From Acidobacteriota bacterium (lineage in GTDB: Bacteria > Acidobacteriota > Terriglobia > UBA7540): a stretch of DNA of 64,000 nucleotides. Positions 36,137-58,090 of this stretch are shown in pieces. The notes beneath the pieces are model-generated. The model did no database searches and was not told the origin of the DNA. It saw nothing but the letters and a program-made list of their open reading frames with translations. The stretch covers positions 124,001 to 188,000 of the forward strand of contig SCRD01000007.1 of the NCBI GenBank assembly GCA_004298155.1, read 5' to 3'. A program made the position numbers and the translations under genes. Numbering within the stretch: position 1 is the stretch's first letter; every line of letters begins with the position of its first letter.

Positions 36137-39100
36137 ATGAGGGCAAAAAAGCTCCTTTGCTTTGCCGGAACTTGGGCTGCGATGCTGATGATTGTGCTTT
36201 GCACATGTCTTGCGGCAGCGGCGCAAACAGCAGCCGGCGCGAGAGTCGAGGGGCTGGTAAGGGGACCGGGGGAAGTAGCGGTGCCGGGCGCGAGGGTAGT
36301 GCTCTTCAACCTTCAAACCCGCGAGCGCAAACAGACGTGGTCCGATGAAACCGGGAGGTACGTTTTCAGTGATGTGGCGCCGGGGCAGTATCGAGTGATT
36401 GTTCTGATTCTGGGCTTCCGGCCGTCGCTGCTGGGGCCGTTGACAGTAACTGCCGGCAAGGATTCGGCCCTGAATGCGACGCTAGCGTTGGCGATGCCGG
36501 GTGAGCAGGCCGGCTTTGGCAGCTTCGGACGGCAAGGCGCGGGGCGGGGCGGAACGGATCGTGGTAATTCTCCCGGGCGTGCGGGCCAGTCGGGGTCTGG
36601 TGAAAGGGCCGGGGCGGGACCAGCGTCAGCCGGGGTTTCGCAGCAGGCCCAAGGGAACGCTCGCGGCTCCTCTCCTGCGCGGGGGACATCGGGCCAGGAA
36701 GGGGCCGGTGACCTGAACAGTATTCTGGCAGAAGCGGGTGAAAGCGATACGACTGGCGGTTTGAGTTTCTCGGGCGAGAGTGGCGGAGCAGCTCAGACGG
36801 GCCAGGGAGGTGGTGGCGTTGGGGGAGACCTCGCAGGCGCGGCGGGCGCCAGCAGTTCCTTCCTGCTGGCGGGCAACGTTGTAAACGCAGCCGCCCCGCC
36901 GATGGAGCGCGATGGCAAAGGCCGATTCTTCAGGTTTGGCGGTGAACCAGGAGGGCTTGGCGGCCCGGGCGGTGAGTCAGGCTTGCCTTTCGGCGGTGGC
37001 GGCGGTGGCCAGGTGTTTTTCTTCGGCGGGTTTCGCAGACCGGGCGCAAATCGGATTCGAGGGAATATCAATGAGACATACACCAACTCAGCCTTTGACG
37101 CCCGTCCTTATCCGTTGAACACGCCTTCGCAGGCACAGGCGCCTTTTTATCGCGAGCTTTTTGGCATTTCGATCGGCGGGCCTTTGAACATTCCCAGGAT
37201 CTACAACGGCGGCAACAAGACGAGCTTCTTCGTGAATTTCAATATTAACCGCGGTACCAGCCCGCAAAATATTCTGGCATCGCTCCCTACTGTGGCAGAG
37301 CGCCAGGGTGATTTTTCAGCAACGACAATTGTTTCGGGGCCAGGTGCAGGAACGATGCCTATCATCTACCAGCCGACATCGTCCCCGGGGCCGCGAACGG
37401 CTTTTCCGGGGAACGTGATACCGTCATCGATGCTGAACTCCGCCTCTCTTGGGCTGATGCAATACCTTCCGCTGCCTAACCTGCCGGGGCAGGTACAGAA
37501 TTACCACGTGCAACTTTCACTCCCAGCGGCCAGCCAGATCTTCATGGCAAGAGTGGGCCAGGAGATTTCGAACAAGGATAACTTGGCAGTGATGTATTTC
37601 TATGATTCCTCGCATACCGACGGCATTACCGGTTTCCCGAATATCCCTTCCACGACCACCACGCGCAGACAGAACGTCAGCGTGACCGAAACACATGATT
37701 TCAGCAGCAAGGCGGTAAACAACTTTGCCGTGAACTTCAACCGCGCACGAACATACGTGACGAATCCCTTTTCCAACAGCCGGAACATCGTAGGGGAACT
37801 GGGAGTTCAGGGCGTTTCACAAAATCCCATGGATTGGGGCTTGCCTACGATCGGATTTACCAATTTCAGCGCGCTCAGTGATGCGACTCCCTCGGTGACC
37901 CGCAACCAGACACTGAGCCTCTCCGACTCCCTGCTTTACAGCGTGGGCAAACACAACCTTGAGTTTGGCGGAGAGATTTCAAAAATCCAGTTGAATTCCC
38001 TGACAAACCAGGAAGCGGCAGGAAGTTTCTCCTTCACCGGGTATAGTACCAGCGACTTCACGACTCAGGGGGCGCCAGTCGCGGGTAGCGGGTATGACTT
38101 TGCTGATTTTCTACTGGGACTTCCGCAGACGACTTCTGAGCGCTATGGCATCCCCGCAAACTATCTGCGATCATCCCGCTACGACGTTTACGGGCAGGAT
38201 GACTGGCGGGTGACGGACCATTTCACGCTGAACCTCGGCGGCCGATGGGAATACGCGGCGCCCTTCAGCGAAAAATACGGCCACCTGTCCGACCTGGCGC
38301 TGGGGCCGAATTTTTCCACTGCGGACGTGGTAACAGGACAAAATCCAGGAAGCTTGCCTCCTTCATTACTTCGTGGCCACCCGGAAAACGTGGCTCCACG
38401 TGTCGGGATTGCCTACCGGCCCTGGACTTCGCACTCTCTGGTGGTGCGCGCCGGTTATGGCATTTTTTATGACGAGTCGATTTACCAGAACCTGGTGGCC
38501 AATCTCGTGAATCAGGCTCCGTTTGCAACTACGAGTACTCTGGTGACCAGCCCGTCGCAAATCCTGACGCTCCAGAACGGCTTTCCCGCCATCAGTCCCG
38601 GAACGGCGAGCAACACCTATGCCGTTGACCCCAATTTTCTAAGCCCGTACGCGCAAAGCTGGAATGCGATGGTTGAACAGAACTTCGGCCAGTCCTATGT
38701 CCTGTCGGTGGCTTATATCGGTACCCGCGGGACACACCTGAACCTCCTGCTGGTACCAGGGGTCGGCACCGCCCTCGCTTCTACTACCCTGCCTTTTGAA
38801 TACAACACTTCGGGAGCGTCGTCCCTCTACAACGGGCTCCAGGTTAGCCTGCGGCACTTTTCGCGCCGGGACTTCTCTTTCTTTTTGAATTACACCTTTT
38901 CGAAAGCTGAGGATAACGCATCCAGCGTAGGAGGAGCTGCCAGCACGCGCTTTTTCAGGATTGGCGGCCCCGGCGGACTGGGAAGCGGGTCGGCCATCTC
39001 CGCGGCGGTAAGCCCGCTGGCTCCGGCGCAGAATCCCTCCGATCTGGGTGCGGAGTGGGCCCTTTCGGGATTCAATCCCACCCACAGCCTGCGCGGCTTT

Positions 39101-39637
39101 GTGCGATATCAGCTGCCATTTGGCGAGCGAGGCCGGTTCCTGAAGAATGCCGGCGCCCTGTCCGCCATCCTCAGCCGCTGGTCTCTGAGTGACATCATGA
39201 CCATCAGTTCCGGCCTTCCGTATACCGCATACGTAGGCGGCAACGCCAGCAACAATGTGAGCGGGCTCGCTCCGTTCGGCGGGTTGCGCGCCGACGCCAC
39301 GGGACTTCCCGTGGCGCTGTCCTCTTCCCAGCAATCAACGCTGAAGTACTTCAATACAGCGGCTTTTGCAGTGCCACTGGCGGGGGCGTTTGGGAATGCC
39401 GGCCGGAATACCATTCCCGGCCCGCCAACCATCAATTTCGATATGGGGCTCGACCGGCTCATCACCATCTCGCGCGAGAAGAACATTACGGCGAATTTTC
39501 GCCTCGCAACCAGCAACACGTTCAACATTGTCAATTATTCAGGCCTGTCTACGACGATCAGCAGCAATACATTCGGGCGGGTTAATGCCGTGGGTTCCAT
39601 GAGAACCATGACTCTTTCGTTCAGGCTGCGGTTTTAA
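36137..39637 (+). CDS. Oar-like TonB-dependent receptor with carboxypeptidase-regulatory domain
   Basis: A 1166-residue outer-membrane protein. A signal peptide (ends near AAAAQT) leads into a carboxypeptidase-regulatory-like domain (VEGLVRGPGEVAVPGARVVL, TGRYVFSDVAPGQYRVIV, residues about 35-115). A Gly/Ser-rich linker follows (about residues 120-310), then a large beta-barrel with LNLGGRWEYAAPFSEKYG, RVGIAYRPWTSHSLVVRAGY and a C-terminal FRLRF strand ending in Phe, typical for outer-membrane insertion. Acidobacteria carry many such Oar-like receptors, thought to take up large ligands such as oligosaccharides. The exceptionally long Gly-rich linker is unusual. The VWFA protein gene begins 63 bases downstream. 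Confidence 0.88.
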   Translation: MRAKKLLCFAGTWAAMLMIVLCTCLAAAAQTAAGARVEGLVRGPGEVAVPGARVVLFNLQTRERKQTWSDETGRYVFSDVAPGQYRVIVLILGFRPSLLGPLTVTAGKDSALNATLALAMPGEQAGFGSFGRQGAGRGGTDRGNSPGRAGQSGSGERAGAGPASAGVSQQAQGNARGSSPARGTSGQEGAGDLNSILAEAGESDTTGGLSFSGESGGAAQTGQGGGGVGGDLAGAAGASSSFLLAGNVVNAAAPPMERDGKGRFFRFGGEPGGLGGPGGESGLPFGGGGGGQVFFFGGFRRPGANRIRGNINETYTNSAFDARPYPLNTPSQAQAPFYRELFGISIGGPLNIPRIYNGGNKTSFFVNFNINRGTSPQNILASLPTVAERQGDFSATTIVSGPGAGTMPIIYQPTSSPGPRTAFPGNVIPSSMLNSASLGLMQYLPLPNLPGQVQNYHVQLSLPAASQIFMARVGQEISNKDNLAVMYFYDSSHTDGITGFPNIPSTTTTRRQNVSVTETHDFSSKAVNNFAVNFNRARTYVTNPFSNSRNIVGELGVQGVSQNPMDWGLPTIGFTNFSALSDATPSVTRNQTLSLSDSLLYSVGKHNLEFGGEISKIQLNSLTNQEAAGSFSFTGYSTSDFTTQGAPVAGSGYDFADFLLGLPQTTSERYGIPANYLRSSRYDVYGQDDWRVTDHFTLNLGGRWEYAAPFSEKYGHLSDLALGPNFSTADVVTGQNPGSLPPSLLRGHPENVAPRVGIAYRPWTSHSLVVRAGYGIFYDESIYQNLVANLVNQAPFATTSTLVTSPSQILTLQNGFPAISPGTASNTYAVDPNFLSPYAQSWNAMVEQNFGQSYVLSVAYIGTRGTHLNLLLVPGVGTALASTTLPFEYNTSGASSLYNGLQVSLRHFSRRDFSFFLNYTFSKAEDNASSVGGAASTRFFRIGGPGGLGSGSAISAAVSPLAPAQNPSDLGAEWALSGFNPTHSLRGFVRYQLPFGERGRFLKNAGALSAILSRWSLSDIMTISSGLPYTAYVGGNASNNVSGLAPFGGLRADATGLPVALSSSQQSTLKYFNTAAFAVPLAGAFGNAGRNTIPGPPTINFDMGLDRLITISREKNITANFRLATSNTFNIVNYSGLSTTISSNTFGRVNAVGSMRTMTLSFRLRF

Positions 39638-39700
39638 ACTGTCGTAACTGCGGGCCGGGTGATCTTCTACGGCCGCGGCCCTTTATGGTTTGAGGTTGTT

Positions 39701-42010
39701 ATGCGCCGACGCACAGTTCGTCAAAAAAATGTCCGCTACGGTTCTGGCCGTACCGTGATGCTGGCAGCCATTGCCGTGAGTGTGGTCGCAGTTGGGATGG
39801 TTGTGCAGCTTGCTATGGCCGCGCAGGACCAGGGGCAGGCGGGCGCGCCGACCTCCGGCCAGATCGGCTACCAGAATCTTTCACAAGGCTACACCCTGAA
39901 GGTCTCTACAAATGAAGTTCTGGTTGACGTTCGCGTAACGGACCGTAGGGGCAATCCTGTAACGAACTTTAAGCAGAGTGATTTTAAAGTGTACGAAGAC
40001 GGCGTGCCGCAGGAGATCAACTCGTTCGATCTCGAAAACATTCAGAAGCTTGTGGAGGAGACCGGCGAAAACGGCAAGCCGACAGAGATCAATCTGGGCG
40101 CCCTTCCTAAAACGACACCCCAGGAGACTTACCGCCGACTGGTTCAGAACCACCGGCTGGTGGTCCTATTCTTCGACCTTTCGTCGATGCAGATTCCGGA
40201 TCTGCTGCGCGCGCTCAAATCCGCACAGAATTTCCTGAAGACGGACATGACGCCAGCCGACCTGGTCGCCCTCGTTACCTATTCGAGCGATCTGAAAGTG
40301 CTTCAGGATTTTACCAACAACCGCGATGTGCTGTCGAAAGCCATCAGGAGCATCCAGATCGGCCAGTCGTTCACGCTCGCGTCAAGCGGGAGCGTGGGCG
40401 AGGCCGGCGGCACGGATTCGTTCGGAACTGAAGTAGTGACGCAGGATACAGGCAATGCGTTCACTCCCGATGAGACCGAGTTCAACATCTTCAATACCGA
40501 TGAAAAACTCTCGGCTCTGCAGTCGCTGGCCAACCTGCTGCAGGCTGTGCCAGGGCGCAAGTCGGTCATCCACTTTTCGAGCGGCATCGAGCAGACGGGC
40601 GTGGACAACGAAGCACAGTTGCAGGCAACGATTGACGCGGCCAACCGGGCCAACGTCTCCTTTTACACGCTGGACGCGCGAGGGCTGATGGCCATGCCGT
40701 CAGGCGGCGGCGCTTCCGCAGCCAGCCCTTCTGGGACCGCAATCTATACTGCGAGCGCCGTATCGTCACAGATCAACTCAACACATAATAGCCGCGAGAC
40801 GCTCTCCACGCTGGCAACGGACACCGGCGGACGCATGTTTACAGACCTGAACAACTTCGCGCCCGTTTTCGAGTATGTGCAGAAAGCGAACACCAGCTAC
40901 TACCTGATCGGATACACTCCATCGAACACCAAAGCAGACGGAAAGTTCCGCCGCATCCGGGTGGAAGTGGTGGAGGGGCGTGGCCTGAAGGTTGAGGCCC
41001 GTCCGGGTTATTACGCCCCTGTCAGCTTCGGGCGCTCTTCAGGCCAGCAAAAGGAGCTCCAGCTTGCCGACGCCCTCAATTCAGAGGCGCCGTTCCTCGA
41101 TCTCCCGCTGGCGATCGAAACCGCATACTTCCTTCAGCCTGACCATCACTATTACGTTGTGCTTGCGGCCAAAATTCCAGGTTCCTCGATTCCTTTTCGC
41201 CAGCATTCATCGGACCACCGGACGCAATTCGATTTTGCATGGCGGGCGACAGACTCCCAGGGCAAAGTGGCAGGCGCGCTTCGAGATACGCTGCCTGTAA
41301 AGCTGGACGCGTATACGTTCCAGACGGTGCTGAAAGGGAACCTCCTTTATGAAGGCGGACTCGTGCTGCCGCCAGGCACTTACAAGCTCAAGGTGGTGGC
41401 GCGTGAAAATCTGACGGGAAAGATGGGCACCTTTGAAAAGCAACTGGTACTTCCTCCTGTCAGCAAGACAGGCCTTGCACTGAGTTCGGTTGTGGTGTCG
41501 AATGAGCTTTCAAAGAAGCCCCCCACGCGGCCTCAGCGCGGTCCCTGGACCACTGGCGCGGAAGATAATCCGCTTGACTCGGGTTCTCAGGCAATCCTGC
41601 CGAGCGTTACCCGGGTGTTTTACGCCAACCAAAACCTATACGTGTATTTCCAATCGTACGTCGCCAAGTCTGCATCATCCGGTAAATCCCCTAGGGGTTC
41701 CAGCCCATCTCCTCCGTCCATGGCGCTCATCTTCTTCCGGAATGGCGTGCAAATTTCTCAAGCTGGACCCTACGCAGCCAAGTCAGGGAAGTCAGGTGAA
41801 GGGACAGCATCCTATTTCACTGAGATCCCGCTGGCCAAATTTCCTCCGGGCAGATACTGGATGCAGGTGAATGTGATGGACGTCCCAGCAAATCAGGTGG
41901 CATTCGCGCGCATTCCAATGGCCATCGTATCGGCCCCAGACAAGGGAGGGAACCACACCGGAAGCAGCCGGGATGAAAAGTACGCCGGCCCTGGAACAAG
42001 CGGCAATTAG
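39701..42010 (+). CDS. VWFA-related acidobacterial protein
   Basis: A 769-residue protein from the ATG at 39701, preceded by GAGG at six bases; the open frame upstream to 39659 is short. An N-terminal hydrophobic segment (VMLAAIAVSVVAVGMVVQLA) could be a signal anchor. Then comes VEVLVDVRVTDRRGNPVTNF-like sequence (residues about 65-90) and a von Willebrand factor A-like domain (LVVLFFDLSSMQIPDLLRAL with a MIDAS-like DxSSM, residues about 155-370, ending near YTPSNTKADGKFRRIRVEV). The later half is beta-rich (GLVLPPGTYKLKVVARENLT). This family is characteristic of Acidobacteria; it is thought to bind metal-dependent protein ligands on the surface, but no function has been established that I can name. 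Confidence 0.85.
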   Translation: MRRRTVRQKNVRYGSGRTVMLAAIAVSVVAVGMVVQLAMAAQDQGQAGAPTSGQIGYQNLSQGYTLKVSTNEVLVDVRVTDRRGNPVTNFKQSDFKVYEDGVPQEINSFDLENIQKLVEETGENGKPTEINLGALPKTTPQETYRRLVQNHRLVVLFFDLSSMQIPDLLRALKSAQNFLKTDMTPADLVALVTYSSDLKVLQDFTNNRDVLSKAIRSIQIGQSFTLASSGSVGEAGGTDSFGTEVVTQDTGNAFTPDETEFNIFNTDEKLSALQSLANLLQAVPGRKSVIHFSSGIEQTGVDNEAQLQATIDAANRANVSFYTLDARGLMAMPSGGGASAASPSGTAIYTASAVSSQINSTHNSRETLSTLATDTGGRMFTDLNNFAPVFEYVQKANTSYYLIGYTPSNTKADGKFRRIRVEVVEGRGLKVEARPGYYAPVSFGRSSGQQKELQLADALNSEAPFLDLPLAIETAYFLQPDHHYYVVLAAKIPGSSIPFRQHSSDHRTQFDFAWRATDSQGKVAGALRDTLPVKLDAYTFQTVLKGNLLYEGGLVLPPGTYKLKVVARENLTGKMGTFEKQLVLPPVSKTGLALSSVVVSNELSKKPPTRPQRGPWTTGAEDNPLDSGSQAILPSVTRVFYANQNLYVYFQSYVAKSASSGKSPRGSSPSPPSMALIFFRNGVQISQAGPYAAKSGKSGEGTASYFTEIPLAKFPPGRYWMQVNVMDVPANQVAFARIPMAIVSAPDKGGNHTGSSRDEKYAGPGTSGN

Positions 42011-45802: not shown

Positions 45803-47506
45803 ATGGGACGGCAGATCTTTCCCGCCAAGAGCAGAGATAAATTCGCGCTGGGGATCGACTATGGAACCGGGTCGGGACGGGTTGCCGTGGTGCGCGTTGC
45901 CAACGGTGAGCTGGTGTCGAGCGTTATCATTCCTTATCCGGACGGCGTAATCGACATGAGGCTTCCAGGAGGCCCAAAGCTTGCCCGCGACTGGGCCTTG
46001 CAGAACCCGCGCGATTATCTCCAAGTGATGGAAAAAGGAGTTCCAAAAGCGCTCAAGGCAGCCGGCGTAAAGTCTGAACAGGTGATTGGCCTGGGTACTG
46101 ACTTTACGGCGTCGAGTCCGCTTCCGGTGAAGCGTGATGGGACGCCGCTCTGCTTTCTGCCAAAATTCCGGAAACAACCCCACGCCTGGGTCAAGCTTTG
46201 GAAGCACCACTCAGCACAGCCGGAAGCAGACCGCATCAATGAAATCGGGAGGGAACGGAACGAAGACTTCATTCGTACATACGGCGGGAAGTACTCCTCC
46301 GAGTGGTTTTTCTCAAAGTTGCTGCAAATTGTGAACGAGTCGCCTGCGATCTACGACGCCACGGAGCGTTTCGTTGAATCGGCCGACTGGATCGTGTGGC
46401 AACTGACCGGAGAAGAAAAGCGCAGCACCTGCACGGCGGGATACAAAGCCATGTGGGTAAAGGGCAGGGGATTTCCTTCATCGGACTTTTTCCGGGCCTT
46501 GCATCCTTCACTTGAAAACGTGATTGGGACAAAGATTTCCGAGGAATATTTTCCACTCGGCGCGCGGGCCGGCGGGATGACGGCCGAATGGGCGCGCAAG
46601 ACAGGTTTGCGCGAGGGAATTCCCATTTCAGTCGGCAACGTGGACGCGCACGTCTCCGCGCCAGCCTGCGCCGTCACCGAACCGGGTTCCATGGTGATGA
46701 TCATGGGCACTTCCATTTGCCACATCCTGCTGGGGCGAGAGCGCCAGATGGTGGAAGGGATGTGCGGTGTGGTGGAAGACGGCGTCGTGCCCGGACTGTG
46801 GGGATACGAGGCCGGCCAGTCAGCGGTAGGAGACATCTTTGCCTGGTTCTTTGAGAACGGCGTGCATGAGTCGGTCCTTCGCGAGGCGCGCAAGAGCAAG
46901 GTTCCCTTCACAACTATCCTGGAAAAGCACGCTGCGGCGCTTGCGCCCGGAGAGTCAGGATTGCTGGCGCTCGACTGGTGGAACGGAAACCGCTCAGTGC
47001 TGGTGGATGCCGGGCTGACGGGCGTGCTGCTGGGGTTGCGGCTCGCGACAAAGCCCGAGGAGATTTATCGCGCTTTGATTGAAGCGACGGCCTTCGGCAC
47101 GCGGCAAATCATCGAAGCCTTTGAGTCCAGAGGCATTGAGGTTCGAAACCTTGTGGCCTGTGGCGGCTTGCCGGAAAAGAACAGGCTGCTGATGCAGATT
47201 TATTCGGACGTCACTGGCCGCGAGATTAGGATTGCCCGGCAGATGCTTACCTGCCCGGCGCTTGGTTCGGCCATGCATGGGGCCGTGGCAGCGGGAAGAG
47301 GAGCCGGGGGCTACGATACCATTTTTGAGGCAGCTCAGAGCATGGCGCATCTCCAGAATGATTCCTACCGGCCGCGGAAGAAGGCACACGAGGTTTACAA
47401 CACAATATTCAAGGAGTACCAGACGCTGCACGATTATTTCGGCCGCGGGGCGAACGAGGTGATGAAGAGGTTGAAGGCTCTGCAAAGCGAAAAGGTCTTT
47501 CAGTAG
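45803..47506 (+). CDS. araB: Ribulokinase (FGGY family)
   Basis: A 567-residue protein of normal length for AraB. FGGY signatures are present: an N-terminal phosphate-binding loop (FALGIDYGTGSGRVAVVRV), a central GSMVMIMGTSICHIL segment near the sugar site, and the C-terminal LVACGGLPEKNRLLMQIYSD and CPALGSAMHGAVAAG region. It phosphorylates L-ribulose to L-ribulose-5-phosphate with ATP. The epimerase gene araD starts 57 bases downstream, and an isomerase-like gene after that, giving the L-arabinose pathway order kinase, epimerase, isomerase. A GAGGAGG box precedes the ATG. Confidence 0.92.
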   Translation: MGRQIFPAKSRDKFALGIDYGTGSGRVAVVRVANGELVSSVIIPYPDGVIDMRLPGGPKLARDWALQNPRDYLQVMEKGVPKALKAAGVKSEQVIGLGTDFTASSPLPVKRDGTPLCFLPKFRKQPHAWVKLWKHHSAQPEADRINEIGRERNEDFIRTYGGKYSSEWFFSKLLQIVNESPAIYDATERFVESADWIVWQLTGEEKRSTCTAGYKAMWVKGRGFPSSDFFRALHPSLENVIGTKISEEYFPLGARAGGMTAEWARKTGLREGIPISVGNVDAHVSAPACAVTEPGSMVMIMGTSICHILLGRERQMVEGMCGVVEDGVVPGLWGYEAGQSAVGDIFAWFFENGVHESVLREARKSKVPFTTILEKHAAALAPGESGLLALDWWNGNRSVLVDAGLTGVLLGLRLATKPEEIYRALIEATAFGTRQIIEAFESRGIEVRNLVACGGLPEKNRLLMQIYSDVTGREIRIARQMLTCPALGSAMHGAVAAGRGAGGYDTIFEAAQSMAHLQNDSYRPRKKAHEVYNTIFKEYQTLHDYFGRGANEVMKRLKALQSEKVFQ

Positions 47507-48303: not shown

Positions 48304-49722
48304 ATGAGCGCAACAACATTTGGAGTGGTTATTGGCAACCGTGGGTTCTTCCCTGATGTTCTTGCCCGCGACGGCCGGGAAGAGGTTCTGAGGACCCTGG
48401 AAGCCGCCGGCTATAAGACCATCTGTCTGACGCCGGAGGAGACCAAGCACGGGGCGGTCGAAACGCAACAGGAGGCGCGCAAGTGCGCAGACCTGTTCAG
48501 GCGGCGTGCCGATGAGATTGACGGCATCCTGGTATCGCTGCCCAATTTCGGCGATGAGCGCGGTGTGGCCAATACGGTTCGCATGAGTGGACTGGACGTC
48601 CCGGTGCTGGTTCAGGCTTTTCCGGACGAGCCCGACAAGATGATGATGGGCGGGCGGCGAGACAGCTTCTGCGGCAAGATTTCGGTATGCAACAACCTGT
48701 GGCAGTACGGAATCCGCTGCACTCTAACTACGCTTCATACCGAAGCACCTGCCTCGCAGGCTTTCAAGGATGATCTCGATTCCTTCGCCGCCGTGTGCAG
48801 GATTGTCAGGGGACTGAAAAACCTGCGGGTAGGCGTCATTGGCGCCCGCCCCGCGGCGTTCAATACCGTCCGCTTCAGCGAGAAGCTGCTGGAGCACACC
48901 GGAATTTCGGTGGAGCCACTGGATCTGTCGGAGGTCTTCGGACGCATCCGGCGCCTCACAGATGATGATAAGAAGGTGAAGGAGAAGCTTGGCAACATCG
49001 AGAAATACGTCGCGACGGGCGGAACACCACAGGCGTCACTGCTTAAAATGGCCAAGTTTGGTGTGGTGGTCGATGAATGGATGGCCGCAAACGAATTGGC
49101 TGGGACCTCCATTCAGTGCTGGACGGCGATGGAAGAGTTCTTCGGCGTTGTTCCTTGTACGCTGATGAGTATGATGTCAAACAACCTGTTTCCAAGTGCC
49201 TGCGAAACTGATATGACAGGCATGATCGGCATGTACGTGCTTCAGTTAGCTTCTGGCACGCCGAGCGCGATCGTGGATTGGAATAACAACTACGGCAACG
49301 ACCCTGACAAGTGCGTCATCTTTCACTGCTCGAACCTGCCAAAACACTTCTTTGAAAATTTCAAGATGGACTTCCAGGAAATCATTGCCAGCTCGGTGGG
49401 GAAGGATAATACTTACGGAACAGTTGTGGGCCAGCTGAAAACCGGCCCCATCACATTTTGTCGCGTATCGACGGATGATCTGAAAGGCGGCATCCGGGCT
49501 TATACCGGGGAAGGCGAGACAACGAACGACCGGCCGGCAAGCTTTGGCGGATACGGTGTACTGAAAGTGCCGAGACTTCAAGATCTCCTGCAGTATATCT
49601 GCAAAAACGGCTACGAACACCACGTGGCTGTCAACCGCAGCCGTTACATGAGGGCCGTTGCTGAAGCTTTGGGTAATTACAAGCGATGGGATGTTTACAC
49701 CCACAGCGTTGAAGGGCAATAG
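48304..49722 (+). CDS. L-fucose/L-arabinose-isomerase-fold protein
   Basis: A 472-residue protein with an AGGAGGT box before the ATG. It belongs to the fucose-isomerase-like group (N-terminal VVIGNRGFFPDVLARDGREE, central LVSLPNFGDERGVANTVRM, FGVVVDEWMAANELAGTSIQ, then CETDMTGMIGMYVLQLASG with conserved Glu and Asp). It is not close to canonical AraA. Placed after araB and araD and before a LacI regulator, it is the likely isomerase converting L-arabinose to L-ribulose, replacing AraA, but a related aldose such as L-fucose is possible. It probably uses a divalent metal, as the fold usually does. Confidence 0.8.
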   Translation: MSATTFGVVIGNRGFFPDVLARDGREEVLRTLEAAGYKTICLTPEETKHGAVETQQEARKCADLFRRRADEIDGILVSLPNFGDERGVANTVRMSGLDVPVLVQAFPDEPDKMMMGGRRDSFCGKISVCNNLWQYGIRCTLTTLHTEAPASQAFKDDLDSFAAVCRIVRGLKNLRVGVIGARPAAFNTVRFSEKLLEHTGISVEPLDLSEVFGRIRRLTDDDKKVKEKLGNIEKYVATGGTPQASLLKMAKFGVVVDEWMAANELAGTSIQCWTAMEEFFGVVPCTLMSMMSNNLFPSACETDMTGMIGMYVLQLASGTPSAIVDWNNNYGNDPDKCVIFHCSNLPKHFFENFKMDFQEIIASSVGKDNTYGTVVGQLKTGPITFCRVSTDDLKGGIRAYTGEGETTNDRPASFGGYGVLKVPRLQDLLQYICKNGYEHHVAVNRSRYMRAVAEALGNYKRWDVYTHSVEGQ

Positions 49723-51056: not shown

Positions 51057-53024
51057 ATGGATAACAACGAACATATCGACCGCCGTGAATTTATCGGACT
51101 CGCGGCCCTGGCCGTGGCCGGAGCCGTGCTGCCTCGTATGTCGGAAGGAGCTGCGCCCCGGAACCCGGGAGTAAATAAGGTGCTCCAAAATGGAACAACC
51201 GTAGATCGCGAAGTCGTGTCCTGGAAAGCCTTGCCGTTTCCAGGCAAGCAGGTTCGGCTGCTCGATGGAATCTTCAGGCGGGAAACCGACATCAACCGGA
51301 CCTACCTGCACATGCTGCCGAACGACCGCCTGGCCCACATGTTCCGTCTCACTGCAGGCTTATCTTCTTCAGCCGAACCGCTCGGTGGATGGGAGAAGCC
51401 CGATTGTGAATTGCGCGGACACTTTGCCGGCGGCCACTATCTTTCGGCCGCAGCGTTGACGTACGCCTCTGCAGGCGACTACGACCTTAAACGGAAAGCC
51501 GATGAGCTGGTCGCGATCTTCGCCAAATGTCAGCAGGCGCACGGCAACGGATACCTGAGCGCCTTCCCGGAGGAATTCTTTGACCGTCTGCGGGAAGGGA
51601 AGCCGGTTTGGGCTCCTTTCTACACACTCCACAAGATCATGGCCGGCCATCTGGACATGTATACTCTGGCTGGCAATGAGCAAGCGCTGGAAACATTGAA
51701 GGGCATGGCCGACTGGGTCGCCCGCTGGGTTGACCCCTTAAGTGAAACCCATATGCAGAGGGTCCTGGAAGTGGAGCACGGCGGAATGCTGGAGGTACTC
51801 TGCAATTTGTATGCGATGACTGGCAATGCGCGGTACTTGCAGATAGCGCGCCGCTTTGATCACCGTGCGATCTTCGATCCGCTTGCGGACTACCGCGACG
51901 AATTAACCGGATTGCACGTGAACACCAATATTCCTAAAATTATCGGCGCGGCCCGCCAGTATGAGTTGACTGGAGACGTCCGATATCGCGATATTGCGGA
52001 TTATTTCTGGCAGGAAGTGACTGCCCGGCGGACATTTTGCAGCGGCGGGACGAGCTACCGCGAACACTGGCTCGGGACTCCAGGGAACCTGACTAAAGAC
52101 ATCGGCCAGGACATGGAAGAATGTTGCTGTGGTTACAATATGCTGAAATTGACACGGCACATCTTTGGCTGGACTGCTGACCCCCGCGCGATGGATTACT
52201 ATGAGCGGGCCCTGTTCAACAGCCGCCTCGGAACCCAGGACCCGCACGGGCTCAAGAGTTACTTCCTCCCGCTTGGACGTGGATGGTGGAAGTATTACAA
52301 TTCGCCCTTTGACTCCTTCTGGTGTTGCACAGGGACTGGAATTGAGGAATTCTCCAAGTTTAACAATTCGATTTACTTCCATGACCAGGATGGAATTTAC
52401 GTCAATCTCTTCATCGCTTCGGAAGTGAACTGGCCACAGAAAGCTATTCGCCTGCGCCAGGAAACGCAATTCCCTGAGCAGGAGGTTACTACACTCGTTA
52501 TCAGCGCCGAGCGGCCAGCCGAGATGACGTTGAACATTCGCATTCCCTGTTGGGCGACCCAGGGCGGTGGCGTCAAGTTGAACGGCAGGCCGTTGGCCGC
52601 CTTTTCCAGCCCCGGAAGTTATCTCGCACTTCATCGCACATGGACCAGCGGCGATCAGGTTGAAGTGAGCCTTCCTATGAGTTTGCATTTGGACCCGCTT
52701 CCCGGTGATGGTTCGCAGCAGGCGGTAATGTATGGTCCGCTGGTGCTTGCAGGGCGGCTTGGAAATTCGCGATTAGGCAAATCCAGTACATACCTTGGCT
52801 ATCAAACAAGCCCCGGCGGGAAACCTGTGGCTGCTCCGGAGGTCCAGGCGGGGAAGGGCGCCCAGGCAAGCTGGGTTGAGCCTGTTCGCGGAAAGGCCTT
52901 GACATTCGGAACCGCAGGACAAGCTCAGTCAACAGAATTGGTTCCGCTTTACAAGGTGCATGATGAGCGCTACGTGGTTTACTGGAAGGTGAATTCGAGC
53001 GCCAGCTCGCAGTGCGGAACGTAG
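51057..53024 (+). CDS. Tat-exported GH127 beta-L-arabinofuranosidase-like enzyme
   Basis: A 655-residue protein with a twin-arginine signal (DRREFIGLAALAVAGAVLP). GH127 features are QVRLLDGIFRRETDINRTYL, the Zn-binding Glu and Cys cluster in GQDMEECCCGYNMLKLTRHI, and the CC pair in SFWCCTGTGIEEFSKFNNSI that includes the proposed cysteine nucleophile. The C-terminal beta-sandwich (VMYGPLVLAGRLGNSRLGKS) is present. The family removes beta-L-arabinofuranose from hydroxyproline-linked or other arabinan side chains. It would supply L-arabinose to the araB-araD-isomerase genes just upstream, under the LacI regulator. Confidence 0.9.
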   Translation: MDNNEHIDRREFIGLAALAVAGAVLPRMSEGAAPRNPGVNKVLQNGTTVDREVVSWKALPFPGKQVRLLDGIFRRETDINRTYLHMLPNDRLAHMFRLTAGLSSSAEPLGGWEKPDCELRGHFAGGHYLSAAALTYASAGDYDLKRKADELVAIFAKCQQAHGNGYLSAFPEEFFDRLREGKPVWAPFYTLHKIMAGHLDMYTLAGNEQALETLKGMADWVARWVDPLSETHMQRVLEVEHGGMLEVLCNLYAMTGNARYLQIARRFDHRAIFDPLADYRDELTGLHVNTNIPKIIGAARQYELTGDVRYRDIADYFWQEVTARRTFCSGGTSYREHWLGTPGNLTKDIGQDMEECCCGYNMLKLTRHIFGWTADPRAMDYYERALFNSRLGTQDPHGLKSYFLPLGRGWWKYYNSPFDSFWCCTGTGIEEFSKFNNSIYFHDQDGIYVNLFIASEVNWPQKAIRLRQETQFPEQEVTTLVISAERPAEMTLNIRIPCWATQGGGVKLNGRPLAAFSSPGSYLALHRTWTSGDQVEVSLPMSLHLDPLPGDGSQQAVMYGPLVLAGRLGNSRLGKSSTYLGYQTSPGGKPVAAPEVQAGKGAQASWVEPVRGKALTFGTAGQAQSTELVPLYKVHDERYVVYWKVNSSASSQCGT

Positions 53025-53046: not shown

Positions 53047-55521
53047 TCAGGCGGCAGGATTCTTCAGGAGCCAAACTTCTGCGAGACGGGACTGCTGGCG
53101 CCAGTTCAATTTCTCCTCATTCTGCGGAGGGTCCCAGGTGAGGACTAACCTCCTGTTTTTGACAAACCGTGACACAACCGGAAATTCTTTAAACTGGCCC
53201 ATTTGGGCGCCGTTGATGGCTGGCTCAACCCTTTCACCATTGATCCGCAAGTGTGCCTGTCCATAGCCGGTAGACCTCACAACGTAGTTAGCATTGGGGT
53301 CGAGCCCTTCATAAACAACCGCAGTTGGCCACATCGTCACCTGCCAACTGAGGCGGGCACGGCTCTTCCCCTGGTCCCACCACCAGAATGTCGGCGCAGG
53401 ATGCTCCTCTGGTTCAGGTCCGTTACCGGGGAAGCAATGGACCACGTGGGGTGACTTCGCAATGTTACCCAAATCGTCATAAAAACTGCCGGGGCCCGGA
53501 TGTTCCCAGGTTGCAAGCTGAAGCAGCCGGCGGCACTGTTCGTCTTCCGAACCAAGCGTGCTGATGATTTTGAACTGGTCCTCAAGCCACCATCGATTGT
53601 TCAGTGGATAATCGACAAAATCGAGAACCGCGCCCCGCTCTTCACCGATGGCAAAATATTTTTGCACGCTCGTCTGAAGACCAATGGAATGGAACAGCAT
53701 ATCGCAAAGATCAGCGATGCGGGTCCGTAGTCCAACGCTGACAGGTTGGGTGACAGCAAGCTTCAGCACGCGGTTTGCTTCCACCATCGCTTTGTTCGCG
53801 CCGAGCCTCTTAGAATTGGCGAGAATGGCGTTTGCCAGTGATTCCAGCCTGGTCTCGTTCACGAGGCGGCGGCGCAAATAAGCATCGTAATTCGCTCGAA
53901 GCTGGCACATCTGCCAGCGCCAGTTTTCCTCAAGGTCCGGGGTCATGCTCGCCAGTTGTTGCCATTCTTGGAGTGTTCCCTCTACAGCCCCGTTGTCAAT
54001 CAGGGGCCCCCGCCAGTTATTTTCCAGCGCCAGGATGGCGTCGGCTGTCTGTTCCGTAATGTCAGCTTTGAAGTATACGCGAGCGTATTCGACAAGAATT
54101 TCTCTTGGGGCGAGGCTCGGGTCCCAGCTCAGGGCGCTCCAGATGGTTTTGTTGACGTCGTCATTGACCCCTTCGGAGTAGGAAATAAATCCGTTTGTGT
54201 AGCCGGAAGTTTGGCTGAAAATGGCCGCGTATCCGGCCGGACGAGGGTTGACGGACTCCCGTCCTTGCGTCAGGGCATAAGCCTGGTCCCAATCCGGGAC
54301 TTCATACTGGCAAAGCTTGTTGTGTGTAATGTCCGGATAATCGCGCAATCCGTATCGGTCCGCGAGCCGGTTGCGGACACCTTCCATTGGCGGGCTTCCC
54401 GGGCCGGCCACAAGGCCCCCGAGCCACGGCGGCAAGTGCTGGTCGATATAGTTGAATGTGTAATCGATTTCGGTGGGGGTAAAATGCTGCAGGCTCAACC
54501 AGACCCTCGCCTCGGGGTGAGTCCGGCTCAAAAGCTTGGCAATATCCTCCAGAAAGGGCAGAACAAGCTGAGGAGGATTGTTGCCGGGATCGCCGCCGGG
54601 GAATGTGAATCCGGTGAAAACCGGTGTAGAAGTCAAGAACTCCTCGCATTGCTTCAGCATTTCCGTGCGGCGGGCTTCGTCCTTCAAGCTGAAGTCGGCC
54701 GGAACCCAGGCCCAGTAGTCCAGTCCATAACGCTGGCAGATTTCGCCAATGGCCCGGTTCATCTCCGGCCGCGGGATTTTCATGACCGGGGTTTCGCGTT
54801 TGTCCTGAAAGGGAATGCCTTCAATGCTGTTGGCCCCGAAGAAAGTGAGTTCGCGAATATACTGCTCAAACTGGGCCGCGTTCCACGCGTCATAGGTGTT
54901 TGACGTGGCACGATACCCGAGTTGGTGCCCGCGAATCGCATAGGCCGGCGCAGTCGCTAAATCCAGATCTGAAGTTATCGCCAGCTTGCCTCGTGAGGCA
55001 TTGAGCCGTCGAAGCAGGCTGCCTACTCCGAACAAGGCGCCCCGGGCGTCAGCACCGATCACCCAAACAACGGGTTGCTGGTTCCGATTGTCGACAAAAA
55101 GCCGGTAACCTTCGGGTCGCGTTTCAGGTAAATACGTCTCCTGCCGGAAGGGTGCCTGGCGTCCCCATTCCCACGCCGCCTTCACCGAAGTAATGGCAAT
55201 AACTGGTTTGCCTTCCGGCCACTTCGTTGAAGTGCCCAGGCGAATCGACGTTCGCTTCTCTACTTCCTCCACCAACGCCTTCGCGGCCGTTTGCTCTGCA
55301 AAAGGCAGTGTTCCCGGCCGCGAAACGACGACCGCGTTATCCAGTCGAATTTCCGGTGAAGAAATGCCATGGCCATGAGAAGTGTCGTTCTGTGCTTTCT
55401 CGATAGGCGTGCCCTGAGGGTGCGGCGCAAGCGATCCCGTGGCGATTGCGGGACCCAGCCCTATCGCGCCTGCACTCACAGCCCCTTGCATAAGAAAACG
55501 CCGTCGATTCATCTGGAACAT
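53047..55521 (-). CDS. Tat-exported glycoside-hydrolase-like protein (paralogue 1)
   Basis: An 824-residue protein from the ATG at 55521 (GAGG three bases upstream) or the ATG at 55512 (MNRRRFLMQG). A Tat signal (NRRRFLMQGAVSAGAIGLG) is followed by a GH20/GH67-like alpha/beta N-domain (FAEQTAAKALVEEVEKRTSI, PEGYRLFVDNRNQQPVVWVI, GALFGVGSLLRRLN), a TIM-barrel-like centre (RGHQLGYR, GGDPG, YPDITH, YSEGVNDDVNK) and a helical C-terminal part ending in a beta-sandwich. The known GH67 catalytic segments are not seen, so the activity is open; an alpha-glucuronidase-like role on hemicellulose side chains is a guess. It lies 40 bases after its larger-spaced paralogue on the same strand. Confidence 0.72.
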   Translation of the reverse strand: MFQMNRRRFLMQGAVSAGAIGLGPAIATGSLAPHPQGTPIEKAQNDTSHGHGISSPEIRLDNAVVVSRPGTLPFAEQTAAKALVEEVEKRTSIRLGTSTKWPEGKPVIAITSVKAAWEWGRQAPFRQETYLPETRPEGYRLFVDNRNQQPVVWVIGADARGALFGVGSLLRRLNASRGKLAITSDLDLATAPAYAIRGHQLGYRATSNTYDAWNAAQFEQYIRELTFFGANSIEGIPFQDKRETPVMKIPRPEMNRAIGEICQRYGLDYWAWVPADFSLKDEARRTEMLKQCEEFLTSTPVFTGFTFPGGDPGNNPPQLVLPFLEDIAKLLSRTHPEARVWLSLQHFTPTEIDYTFNYIDQHLPPWLGGLVAGPGSPPMEGVRNRLADRYGLRDYPDITHNKLCQYEVPDWDQAYALTQGRESVNPRPAGYAAIFSQTSGYTNGFISYSEGVNDDVNKTIWSALSWDPSLAPREILVEYARVYFKADITEQTADAILALENNWRGPLIDNGAVEGTLQEWQQLASMTPDLEENWRWQMCQLRANYDAYLRRRLVNETRLESLANAILANSKRLGANKAMVEANRVLKLAVTQPVSVGLRTRIADLCDMLFHSIGLQTSVQKYFAIGEERGAVLDFVDYPLNNRWWLEDQFKIISTLGSEDEQCRRLLQLATWEHPGPGSFYDDLGNIAKSPHVVHCFPGNGPEPEEHPAPTFWWWDQGKSRARLSWQVTMWPTAVVYEGLDPNANYVVRSTGYGQAHLRINGERVEPAINGAQMGQFKEFPVVSRFVKNRRLVLTWDPPQNEEKLNWRQQSRLAEVWLLKNPAA

Positions 55522-55561
55522 TACCTCGCTTGAACGTGAGATTCTTCGCGCAGTTAAAGTC

Positions 55562-58090
55562 TTATATCCTGATGAGCCAGACTTCGGCAACCTGGCAGCC
55601 GCGGCCATTGTGGCCAAGTCCGGTTTCCCGATGCCAGGTCAGGGTGAGGTTTCCGGTCGCGGTTGCAGCACGCGGAACTTCAAACTCCAATGGCTTGGGC
55701 GGCCACGGTTTGTTGATCAACGGATGTATAGAGTGCTTTCCATTGCAATCCAGCCGGACCTTTACGTGGGGCGCATCGCCACTGTACACAACCCTCACCT
55801 TGTAATGCGCGTTGAGATCAAGCCCTTGGTATTGCACCTGGAGCGGCGCATCGAATAACGACTCCGCCCAGCACTTCCATGCCATGGGGAACGGGGCCCT
55901 CGACCATTCAGGATAGCCGTGACCGACCAGGGCCGAATGCCGGAATTCAGGATCGCTCCCTGCTCCAGGCCCCCGCACGAGGTGCGGCTGCTGTGTCAGG
56001 TCACCGAGGTTATCATAGAAGCCGCCTGGACCGGGATCCGTGCGATCCAGTATTTCGAGGATTGTAATGTACCGTGCGTTATAGGACGCCAGCTTGCGGA
56101 CTTCAGCAAACTTTTGCTTCAGCCAGGGAGCGTTGTTGAGCGGCACGTCGAGGGTATCCAGATTGGCAGCCCGCGACACGGCCTCGGCCTGATATCTCTC
56201 GACCGCCAGTTGCATATGAATACTCTGGAAAAGCGCTTCGCCAAGTTCAAGGATGCGAGTCCGCAGGTCTTGCGCTGGAGAATTGGTAAGAGCGTCATCG
56301 AGGTGCTTTTCCGCCCGGTTAATCAGTTCCAGCAGGTTGATGTCGCTGGTTGGTTCAGCCTTCTCATCTCCGACATCGAGTAGGTTTGGCCGTGCGCCAA
56401 GGCGACGAATCTCGCCAAGCACGGCCCTGACCTGCTCTTCCGCGTTTGTTTCATTCACCAGTCGCCGCTGAACGAAGGCGTCGTAATAGGCTCGGTAGAG
56501 GCCCATCTGGAAGCGCCAGTTCTCAAGTTCCGCCGGCGTGGCGCTCGATTCCATGTCCTGAAACTGTTCGAGAGTTGTGCCCACGCGCTCATGGGATAGC
56601 AGAGGGCCTCTCCAGTTTTCCTGCAGGCTCAGAATGCCCTGGGCAAAACCATCTCGCAGGCGTTCTGAAATGAAGTAACCGCTGTATTCACGCAGAATTT
56701 CGACGACAGGTTTTTCAGGGTCCCATCCGAGCGAACTCCATAGAATTTTATTAACGTCGTCGTTGCAGCCCTCTGAATAAGAAATGGACCCGATGGAATG
56801 AGGCGCTTGAAGTCGAAAAATATCGGCATCATCAAGCGGCCTGGGATTGATGACTTCCCGTCCTTCCGTCAGTGCATAAGCCAGGTCCCAATCCGGCACC
56901 GGAAACTGGCATTCCACGCTGTGGGTAATGTCAGGATATAGCCGGATCGGATAACGTTCCGGGAGCCTCTGGCGCAGGGTGGATACGTCGATGCGTATTT
57001 GAGGGCCATAGACCACCCCTGAAAGCCAGGCCGGTTGCCGGTCGATGATTTCAAAGAATTCCTTCATCCATGCTTCATCAAACGACTGCGGGGACATCCA
57101 CATCTCTGCATGAGGATGAAAGCGGTGCAGGTTCTGTGCCTGCTTTTCGAGCAGAGACATCATGTATTTGGGTTCGGTGTGCCCCGGATCACCTCCCGGC
57201 ACCATTACCGCGTCAACGCGCGGCAGGGCCTTAAAGACTTCCCCCCATTCGCGAATTGCAAAATCCACCGTCTCCGGATTCGAATAGTCCTTGTCCATTG
57301 CCGGATACCAGATCCAGACGTCCAGGCCGTACTCGTCCGCGAGGCGTGACATCTCAATCATCATCTGCATAGGAGGCAGCGGAAAGTGAGGGCTGGTTGA
57401 CTGATCGTCTGACCGTGGAGGGATGAGTTCAATAGCGTTCGTTCCGAACACTGCCAGGTCCCGGAAATATTGCTCCCACATAGGGACATTCCATCCGTCG
57501 TACGAGTTGGTCTTGGGGCGATAGCCCAACTGGTGGCCACGAAGTTTGTATTTTGGCGAGGTCACAACATCCAGCGGCCCCGTGAGGCTGACCTTCCGCG
57601 TTGACATTTGAAGGCTGCGCAACAATCCTCCAACGCCGAACAGCACGCCGCGCTCTCCGGCGCCAGCGACAGTCACGATCGTTGAGTCGGAGCTGTTCGA
57701 CGTACGCAGGCGATAGCCTTCCGGGCCGGCGGTCTGGCGCCCTTTCCCCGTCGCGCCACCCGCTAACTCGCCGCCTGCTTTTTCCAGTGCCTGCTCGGAA
57801 CCAACCACGATGGCGGGATGCGCGCCAACCTCCGACCGATGCACGACGGGCCAGCGGATTTCCGTGCGCTTCTCAACCTCTTCCATCAGAAGTTGAACAG
57901 CTTTCTGCTCTCGCCGGGAGAGGCCCTCTGGCATTACGACAACGGCATCCGTCAGATCAATTGCACCGGCCTTTGCAGTCTGCGCGCCATTCTTTGCGAA
58001 GAGGCCAGCACCACCGCCGCCGGTCCAGCCCCAGGCCCCGATCATCCCGGAAAAAAATGCGCCTTCTTTTAAGAAACGTCGGCGATTCAT
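55562..58090 (-). CDS. Tat-exported glycoside-hydrolase-like protein (paralogue 2)
   Basis: An 842-residue protein with a Tat signal (MNRRRFLKEGAFFSGMIGAW) behind GAGGTCAG. It is a tandem paralogue of the gene at 53047-55521, sharing RGHQLGYR (residues 184-191), GGDPG (299-303), YPDITH (385-390), PDWDLAYALTEGREVINPRP and SYSEGCNDDVNK (437-448). The N-domain resembles the GH20/GH67 alpha/beta domain (PEGYRLRTSNSSDSTIVTVA, GVLFGVGGLLRSLQ). The conserved acids in GGDPG and YSEGxND are catalytic candidates. The two genes are 40 bases apart and probably form an operon read away from the TolC gene. Its family assignment is uncertain. Confidence 0.75.
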   Translation of the reverse strand: MNRRRFLKEGAFFSGMIGAWGWTGGGGAGLFAKNGAQTAKAGAIDLTDAVVVMPEGLSRREQKAVQLLMEEVEKRTEIRWPVVHRSEVGAHPAIVVGSEQALEKAGGELAGGATGKGRQTAGPEGYRLRTSNSSDSTIVTVAGAGERGVLFGVGGLLRSLQMSTRKVSLTGPLDVVTSPKYKLRGHQLGYRPKTNSYDGWNVPMWEQYFRDLAVFGTNAIELIPPRSDDQSTSPHFPLPPMQMMIEMSRLADEYGLDVWIWYPAMDKDYSNPETVDFAIREWGEVFKALPRVDAVMVPGGDPGHTEPKYMMSLLEKQAQNLHRFHPHAEMWMSPQSFDEAWMKEFFEIIDRQPAWLSGVVYGPQIRIDVSTLRQRLPERYPIRLYPDITHSVECQFPVPDWDLAYALTEGREVINPRPLDDADIFRLQAPHSIGSISYSEGCNDDVNKILWSSLGWDPEKPVVEILREYSGYFISERLRDGFAQGILSLQENWRGPLLSHERVGTTLEQFQDMESSATPAELENWRFQMGLYRAYYDAFVQRRLVNETNAEEQVRAVLGEIRRLGARPNLLDVGDEKAEPTSDINLLELINRAEKHLDDALTNSPAQDLRTRILELGEALFQSIHMQLAVERYQAEAVSRAANLDTLDVPLNNAPWLKQKFAEVRKLASYNARYITILEILDRTDPGPGGFYDNLGDLTQQPHLVRGPGAGSDPEFRHSALVGHGYPEWSRAPFPMAWKCWAESLFDAPLQVQYQGLDLNAHYKVRVVYSGDAPHVKVRLDCNGKHSIHPLINKPWPPKPLEFEVPRAATATGNLTLTWHRETGLGHNGRGCQVAEVWLIRI

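What the first reader, a model, noticed from the sequence alone, without database searches (positions are those of the whole stretch)
53047..58090. Tandem Tat-exported glycosidase-like paralogues of uncertain family
Two proteins of more than 800 residues share unusual motifs (RGHQLGYR, GGDPG, YPDITH, YSEGxNDDVNK) and a GH20/GH67-like N-domain but lack recognisable GH67 catalytic segments. They sit beside a GH127 and arabinose genes, suggesting a new or poorly described glycosidase family acting on hemicellulose or glycoprotein side chains.
Basis: partly seen in the sequence, partly recalled or inferred. Interest (0 to 1): 0.56.

Follow-up and report, generated by a model that had tools for sequence, protein, structure and literature searches.

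The report
Unclassified exported glycosidase family in Acidobacteria
Two neighbouring genes of a soil Acidobacterium encode exported proteins that look like sugar-chain-cutting enzymes of a family no library used here recognises, and relatives of one of them often sit in an operon with genes for taking up and breaking down acidic sugars.

Summary
P2 (55562-58090, -, 842 aa) and P1 (53047-55512, -, 821 aa) are 41% identical and share all the named motifs. Pfam finds only a weak GH20b/GH67N-like N-domain; no catalytic family in Pfam or NCBIfam matches. A predicted model of the P2 core (pLDDT 82, pTM 0.87) is an (alpha/beta)8 barrel nearest to GH84, GH115, GH67 and GH20 structures. Profile-profile comparison ties the barrel itself to GH163 (E 1e-5) and GH67 (E 7e-5); reversed and unrelated-barrel controls fail. 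The GH67 catalytic acid falls on a proline, so GH67 membership fails. Six acidic residues are invariant in 47 of 47 relatives, D301 and D387 among them. P1 and P2 are not a recent duplication: they belong to two deep subfamilies that usually occur in the same genome. Genes of P2's subfamily are followed directly by an HpaI/GarL-type 2-keto-3-deoxy-acid aldolase in 17 of 35 loci and by an acid-sugar type MFS transporter in 5 more; P1's subfamily in 0 of 7. Best reading: an unclassified family of exported exo-glycosidases, P2's branch releasing an acidic sugar. The substrate is inferred; no activity is known.

The parts
55562..58090 (-). P2, exported protein of subfamily C, 842 aa
   Evidence: ORF; 33-row family alignment; tree
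58001..58090 (-). Tat-type signal region of P2 (MNRRRFLKEG...)
   Evidence: sequence; Pfam TAT_signal matches 6 of 33 relatives, best E 0.0027
57602..57979 (-). GH20b/GH67N-like N-domain of P2 (residues 38-163)
   Evidence: PF02838 E 8.4e-6, PF03648 E 8.4e-4; solved GH84/GH67 N-domains by profile
56723..57544 (-). predicted (alpha/beta)8 barrel of P2 (about residues 183-456)
   Evidence: AlphaFold2 model mfd1d40c23b5e, pLDDT 82.2; fold searches
57188..57190 (-). D301 (GGDPG), end of strand 4, candidate catalytic acid
   Evidence: D in 47 of 47 relatives; position
56930..56932 (-). D387 (YPDITH), end of strand 7, candidate catalytic residue
   Evidence: D in 47 of 47
56771..56773 (-). E440 (YSEG), end of strand 8, candidate catalytic residue
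   Evidence: E in 42 and D in 5 of 47
53047..55512 (-). P1, exported protein of subfamily A, 821 aa; 49 bases downstream of P2, same strand
   Evidence: ORF; tree
54589..54591 (-). D308 of P1 (GGDPG), counterpart of D301
54331..54333 (-). D394 of P1 (YPDITH), counterpart of D387
54172..54174 (-). E447 of P1 (YSEG), counterpart of E440
51057..53024 (+). GH127 protein, convergent with P1
   Evidence: PF07944 E 2.9e-114; the P1-GH127 arrangement recurs in L184
49838..50842 (+). LacI-type regulator
48304..49722 (+). FucI-fold sugar isomerase, probable stand-in for AraA
   Evidence: PF02952 E 2.3e-26; no AraA_N in the genome
47564..48226 (+). L-ribulose-5-phosphate 4-epimerase (AraD type)
   Evidence: NF005123 264.8 bits, over cut-off
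45803..47506 (+). ribulokinase AraB
   Evidence: NF003154 735.9 bits, over cut-off

Best explanation
P1 and P2 are members of a glycoside hydrolase family that the libraries searched here do not hold. Shown: export signal, a GH20b/GH67N-like N-domain, and (by prediction) an (alpha/beta)8 barrel of the GH20/GH67/GH84/GH115/GH163 fold group, with a fixed set of acidic residues at strand ends. Inferred: they act outside the cytoplasm as exo-glycosidases on glycan pieces, with the carboxylates D301 (strand 4), D387 (strand 7) and E440 (strand 8) doing the acid/base chemistry. For P2's subfamily (C) the product is most likely an acidic sugar, a uronic or 3-deoxy-2-ulosonic acid: it would be taken up by the ACS-type MFS transporter and finally split, as a 2-keto-3-deoxy acid, by the HpaI/GarL-type aldolase encoded next door in about half of the relatives. 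P1's subfamily (A) is a partner that usually occurs in the same genome and probably cuts another bond of the same glycan.
For: No catalytic family match in Pfam, NCBIfam or PDB sequences. P2 core model pLDDT 82.2, pTM 0.87; Foldseek best GH115 4zmh_B E 5.1e-18 TMq 0.65, GH67 1mqr 2.9e-17, GH84 6pv5 2.3e-14; VIA Z 21.3 (GH84, rmsd 4.7, 431 aligned) to 20.5 (GH115 4c91_A, rmsd 4.2, 459 aligned), tied within 1. Barrel-only profile match to GH163 80.9% E 1.2e-5 and GH67 63.4% E 6.8e-5; reversed profiles at most 0.6%, unrelated TIM barrels at most 1.0%. D198, D229, D301, D387, E412, D445 in 47 of 47 rows. Subfamily C: HpaI aldolase directly downstream in 17 of 35 loci, ACS-type MFS instead in 5 more; subfamily A 0 of 7, B 0 of 10. 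The aldolase's nearest models and structures are GarL, HpaI and YfaU/RhmA; the MFS's is the D-galactonate transporter subfamily. The genome of the window keeps a 64% identical aldolase and a 72% identical MFS, the latter near a DHDPS-family gene and a GH29 gene. Subfamily A was found in 9 genomes, 8 of which also have C.
Against: No activity is known for any member, and the catalytic residues are inferred from conservation. The model region around YPDITH (blocks 351-410 of the model) has pLDDT 47-67. 13 of 35 C loci, the window included, have neither aldolase nor MFS next to the gene, and several of the 17 are close relatives (L053-L055; L045 and L047). The aldolase and MFS matches are all below their curated cut-offs, so their substrates are not fixed. 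The barrel-only match to GH115 fails (2.1%).
Confidence: 0.55

Rival explanations
1. P2 is a uronidase that works like GH67/GH115: it removes GlcA, MeGlcA or GalA side groups from plant polysaccharide fragments, with a different set of catalytic residues.
For: Foldseek ranks GH115 and GH67 alpha-glucuronidases first; barrel-level profile match to GH67; ACS-type MFS and GarL-type aldolase beside subfamily C; a 2-hydroxyacid dehydrogenase follows the aldolase in L045, L047 and L048; the window's genome has no GH67 or GH115 match. GH67 and GH115 themselves share a fold but not active-site residues (PMC3879575, passages read).
Against: No uronate isomerase, aldarate dehydratase or pectin lyase was seen among the neighbours scanned. 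The GH67 acid falls on P302. Fold rank does not give the substrate.
Confidence: 0.2
2. P2 releases a 3-deoxy-2-ulosonic acid (Dha or Kdo), or works beside an enzyme that does, on material such as rhamnogalacturonan II; the HpaI-type aldolase then splits the free sugar directly.
For: A compact unit C gene-HpaI-MFS occurs in L038, L040, L043, L176 and L178; HpaI-type aldolases cut 2-keto-3-deoxy acids (names). The C-A tandem of L174 is preceded by a TonB protein and a BT_1020-like propeller with a sialidase-like CBM (PF24067 E 3e-80, PF22585). Sialidase-fold BNR proteins lie near C genes in L049, L051, L052, L056 and L069. A FucI-like isomerase and FucP occur in several loci; that L-fucose isomerase also takes D-arabinose, the other half of Kdo, is recalled. 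GH127 lies beside P1.
Against: Only one locus has the BT_1020-like protein. Known Kdo/Dha hydrolases have propeller folds (recalled). The aldolase family is promiscuous. A paper search combining Kdo, aldolase, D-arabinose and RG-II gave nothing to the point.
Confidence: 0.15
3. The family acts on glycoprotein glycans, in the manner of GH163 (endo-beta-GlcNAcase) or as a hexosaminidase.
For: GH163 is the nearest characterised family by profile among the three compared (full length 98.9% E 9.8e-18, barrel 80.9%); a subfamily B member in Asticcacaulis sits among GH2, GH3, beta-galactosidase, GH125, GH92, alpha-L-fucosidase and a beta-GlcNAcase gene; the Granulicella member between GH29 and a GH20-like gene; NAGLU and TonB genes near L031. 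GH163 cleaves GlcNAc-beta-1,2-Man (PMC10154615, passages read).
Against: This is mainly subfamily B, 37-38% identical to P2; A and C mostly lack this context. The GH20 Asp-Glu pair (recalled) is Asp-Pro here.
Confidence: 0.12
4. One reading: P1 and P2 debranch arabinose-rich hemicellulose or arabinogalactan, with GH127 and the ara genes.
For: GH127 and ara genes adjacent; the P1-GH127 arrangement recurs in a same-genus genome (L184, 83% and 79% identity); GH127 and GH30 lie near a subfamily B gene in L060.
Against: Convergent strands; no other P1 or P2 relative outside L184 and L060 showed GH127 in the stretches examined, and AraB/AraD were seen in none; GH127 also holds aceric acid hydrolases (NF049879, 91.5 bits against a cut-off of 950).
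Confidence: 0.08

Closest known systems
GH163 (DUF4838, PF16126)
   Same: N-domain type; barrel profile match E 1.2e-5; the Asp of the GH163 'ND' motif aligns with D301; the helix after strand 8 (W.P....I..EY) aligns
   Different: PF16126 does not match; the Cys cluster after the Asp, kept in GH163 and in several distant sisters, is absent
GH67 alpha-glucuronidase
   Same: GH67N-like N-domain, barrel, colinear alignment through the post-barrel helices (E 1.3e-12 full, 6.8e-5 barrel); predicted fold
   Different: PF07488/PF07477 do not match; the acid Glu285 aligns with P302
GH115 alpha-glucuronidase
   Same: best Foldseek E-value, TMq 0.65-0.66, VIA Z 20.5
   Different: PF15979 does not match; barrel-only profile comparison fails, 2.1%
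GH84 O-GlcNAcase / GH20 hexosaminidase
   Same: best VIA Z (21.3); GH20b-type N-domain
   Different: no catalytic Pfam match; one Asp followed by Pro where those families have an acidic pair (the pair is recalled)

Membership tests
GH67 | catalytic domain model PF07488 (and PF07477) | tested here: not met
   no match for P1 or P2 at E up to 10 nor in any of 33 relatives at E up to 1
GH67 | general acid Glu (E285 of the Geobacillus enzyme, in KADSE) | tested here: not met
   aligns with P302 of P2, proline in 47 of 47; D301 is next to it
GH67 | N-domain PF03648 | tested here: inconclusive
   20.0 bits for P2, cut-off 24.3; listed for 23 of 33 relatives at E up to 1
GH115 | family model PF15979 | tested here: not met
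   no match; barrel hhalign 2.1%
GH115 | fold | tested here: met
   predicted model only: Foldseek E 5.1e-18, VIA Z 20.5
GH163 | family model PF16126 | tested here: not met
   no match
GH163 | remote homology of the barrel | tested here: met
   80.9%, E 1.2e-5 with 8 sequences; controls at most 1.0%
GH163 | endo-beta-N-acetylglucosaminidase activity | not testable with these tools
   needs enzyme assay
GH20 | catalytic domain model PF00728 | tested here: not met
   no match; only the N-domain PF02838 matches
GH20 | catalytic Asp-Glu pair after strand 4 (recalled) | tested here: inconclusive
   Asp-Pro (D301-P302) in 47 of 47, but no residue-level alignment to GH20 was made
GH84 | catalytic Pfam domain and Asp-Asp pair (recalled) | tested here: inconclusive
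   no catalytic Pfam match but best VIA Z, 21.3; no profile alignment to GH84 was made
glycoside hydrolase (any) | hydrolysis of a glycosidic bond | not testable with these tools
   fold, export and glycan-related neighbours only

The most novel reading that the evidence does not exclude
A glycosidase family with no member in the libraries searched here, whose C branch forms with an HpaI-type aldolase and an ACS-type MFS a minimal three-gene pathway for 3-deoxy-2-ulosonic acids (Dha, Kdo) from rhamnogalacturonan II or similar glycans: a barrel-fold answer to a job so far known from propeller-fold hydrolases (recalled), with P1 and GH127 taking neighbouring residues of the same side chain.
Probability: 0.15. 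Interest if true: 0.65.

Novelty: new variant of a known kind. Interest (0 to 1): 0.42.

Why it matters
The proteins link two enzyme groups that compare poorly by sequence (GH163 and GH67) and form a glycosidase-like family that the three annotated records found call 'hypothetical protein'. The operon with a 2-keto-3-deoxy-acid aldolase gives a concrete lead to the substrate, so the activity can be tested directly. Acidobacteria are common in soils, and what they take from plant cell walls is poorly known.

Tried and rejected
Recent tandem duplication: rejected by the tree. P1 groups with L063-L066 and L091 (support 0.999), P2 with L032, L043, L042 and L037.

One operon with GH127 and ara: rejected, the strands converge.

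Viral copies: a scan of viral contigs with the family profile found no relative.

Consensus promoters and terminators near P1/P2 do not exceed shuffled sequence.

First full-length model (pLDDT 68.7): active-site stretch 353-425 of low confidence; its fold ranks name the same families as the second model and were not relied on.

Solved relatives of the 579-aa FucI-like protein and of the window's isomerase: none by sequence.

Literature: searches showed no paper on this family in their listings; this is no proof that none exists. One search looked for the accessions and locus tags of the three annotated members: 0 papers. CAZy/dbCAN could not be searched.

Rows dropped: A1 holds 33 members; family ORFs L006, L013, L016, L027, L031 and L037 were left out, as were the locus copies of P1/P2 and the weak hits L023 and L024. 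The GH163 profile used 8 of the 20 loci fetched, GH67 8 of 10, GH115 18 of 18. The tree and the 47-row counts leave out fragments and locus duplicates, and the genomes. In one search subfamily labels of loci outside the tree rest on best match or default (L182 and L183 by default); four C loci (L041, L179, L037, L069) and one A locus (the P1-like gene of L174) with under 900 bases downstream were left out of the counts; L062 and L147 are the same sequence.
Full report
What is there. P2 (55562-58090) and P1 (53047-55512) are two minus-strand genes 49 bases apart, P2 first. Both begin MNRRRFL, a Tat-type start. The search of the genome shows no third copy. GH127 on the plus strand ends 22 bases before the P1 stop, so it converges on P1 and is not in the same operon.

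Family search. At E up to 10, Pfam gives P2 only the GH20b N-domain (27.0 bits, cut-off 26.1) and a sub-threshold GH67N, besides one chance-level match; P1 gets GH20b just below its cut-off. NCBIfam gives nothing near a cut-off. None of 33 relatives scanned matches a catalytic glycosidase barrel model; 2 weakly match a GH36 C-terminal model, best E 0.014. A family profile against PDB sequences finds only the N-domains of GH84, GH67 and hexosaminidase enzymes, and one chance-level match.

Distribution. 25 of 396 Acidobacteriota genomes have a match at E up to 0.001; four of these (G235, G242, G250, G348) are short weak matches, and those of G242 and G250 are GH20 and GH67 proteins. Of 296 genomes of a Segetibacter's phylum, 3 have clear members (a fourth, G492, matches in the N-domain). 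Of 294 genomes of a Pirellulales' phylum, 9 match at 1e-10, but only G396 is a full-length member; the rest are more distant sisters or partial matches. Members also lie on plasmids of Asticcacaulis, Sphingomonas and Granulicella, annotated as hypothetical proteins. Among 61 related genomes, the window's own included, 17 have members.

Subfamilies. A tree of 47 members plus two outgroups gives A (P1, L063-L066, L091; support 0.999), B (L057-L062, L067, L145, L146) and C (P2 and most others); the support for the node that joins B and C is only 0.567. P1 and P2 are thus ancient paralogues brought together. A was found in nine genomes: G000, G062, G125, G325, G367, G591, G991, G1009, G1020. Eight also have C. 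In the ninth, G991, the contig ends inside the P1 orthologue. The C-A tandem recurs in G1009 (L174; 58% and 67% identity).

Fold. The P2 core (residues 36-550), modelled from 15 sequences, reached pLDDT 82.2 and pTM 0.87, the best of five models; the others were at 68-75. The N-domain is followed by eight strands and a helical tail. Foldseek ranks GH115, then GH67, GH84 and GH20. VIA-align gives Z 21.3 for GH84 and 20.5 for GH115, tied within 1. A shared fold does not give a function.

Profile comparison. Full-length hhalign scores: GH163 98.9% (E 9.8e-18), GH67 97.8% (1.3e-12), GH115 97.0% (9.8e-11); these include the N-domain. With the barrel and tail alone: GH163 80.9% (1.2e-5), GH67 63.4% (6.8e-5), GH115 2.1%. 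Reversed templates give 0.3-0.6%; two unrelated TIM-barrel families from the neighbourhoods give 1.0% and 0.2%. Distant sister proteins (L074, L094-L096) match the family barrel at 99.9% (E 6.6e-34). The sisters' own barrel matches to GH163 (37.3%) and GH67 (0.3%) are weak, so the sisters do not strengthen the link by themselves.

Catalytic residues (inferred). Over 47 members D198, D229, D301, D387, E412 and D445 are invariant; E440 is Glu in 42 and Asp in 5. In five of the six sisters examined the motif search finds an Asp at the D301 place, an Asp or Glu at the D387 place, and YSEG; it missed L094. The GH67 acid Glu285 (I counted along the chain printed) falls on P302, next to D301. GH67 and GH115 are known to share a fold but not active-site residues (PMC3879575, passages), and in GH115 even the base is unsettled (PMC9063842, passages). 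A third layout in this fold group would not be odd.

Neighbourhoods. In subfamily C, 35 loci have at least 900 bases downstream. In 17 the next gene is an HpaI/GarL-type aldolase, mostly overlapping or within 20 bases. In 5 it is an ACS-type MFS transporter. In 13, the window among them, it is neither. Several of the 17 are close relatives and not independent, but the pattern spans subgroups of the tree (L034, L038, L040, L043, L046, L049, L051). Subfamily A has 0 of 7 and B 0 of 10 (two of these ten are one sequence); a weak HpaI relative (34%) lies 2.1 kb from the A gene of L065. Further out, C loci hold TonB proteins, DHDPS-family genes, a FucI-like isomerase, FucP and GntR regulators and, in L049, L051, L052, L056 and L069, sialidase-fold BNR proteins. 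The window's genome has the aldolase (64% identity) and MFS (72%) on other contigs, the MFS followed by a DHDPS-family gene and, further on, an alpha-L-fucosidase gene.

Subfamily B. The Asticcacaulis member stands in a run of TonB, GH2, GH3, beta-galactosidase, GH125, GH92, (member), alpha-L-fucosidase, GntR and a beta-GlcNAcase gene, which resembles glycoprotein N-glycan breakdown. The Granulicella member is beside GH29 and GH20-like genes. The Sphingomonas member has no such context.

Mechanism. Shown: export signal, fold by prediction, invariant residues, operon partners. Inferred: that they cut glycosidic bonds, which residues do it, and that P2's product is acidic. The simplest reading of the three-gene unit (C gene, aldolase, MFS) is that the enzyme frees an acidic sugar which enters through the MFS and ends at the aldolase. 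Uronic acids need further enzymes that were not seen among the neighbours scanned. 3-Deoxy-2-ulosonic acids would not, and the BT_1020-like propeller protein next to the tandem of L174 hints at rhamnogalacturonan II; that BT1020 is the Dha hydrolase (GH143) and beta-L-arabinofuranosidase (GH142) is recalled, while the co-occurrence of GH142 and GH143 in RG-II debranching is in PMC7922503 (passages). This stays a minority reading.

Verdict. A glycosidase-like family not held by the libraries searched, of a known fold group, well conserved in Acidobacteria; worth an enzyme screen. CAZy itself could not be searched, so 'unclassified' means unclassified in Pfam, NCBIfam and PDB sequences.

Noticed in passing
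window 48304-49722 (+): A FucI-fold isomerase (PF02952) sits between AraD and LacI, and the genome has no AraA_N match. Probably a non-canonical L-arabinose isomerase; no solved relative by sequence. A 72% identical copy lies about 5.5 kb from the P2 orthologue in L043.
   Followed up: partly
L074 8058-9953; L092-L096: Distant sister proteins, mostly from Planctomycetes, with YDxGGC.C..C or a similar motif in place of GGDPG and with YSEGxxED.NK: a further group without a catalytic Pfam match in the one member scanned, L074.
   Followed up: partly
L031 / G1004:C118: The P2 orthologue has an in-frame TAG: pseudogene, recoding or sequencing error.
   Followed up: no
L047 16229-17965, L033, L045, L053-L055: A 579-aa FucI-like protein in several subfamily C loci has no solved relative by sequence and only a weak Fucose_iso_C match.
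   Followed up: partly
L146 (Sphingomonas plasmid): The subfamily B gene lies between defence genes (DISARM helicases, a Cas3 gene) and an alpha/beta hydrolase.
   Followed up: no
window 36137-42010 (+): A TonB-type outer membrane protein followed by a protein with a weak VWA domain.
   Followed up: no
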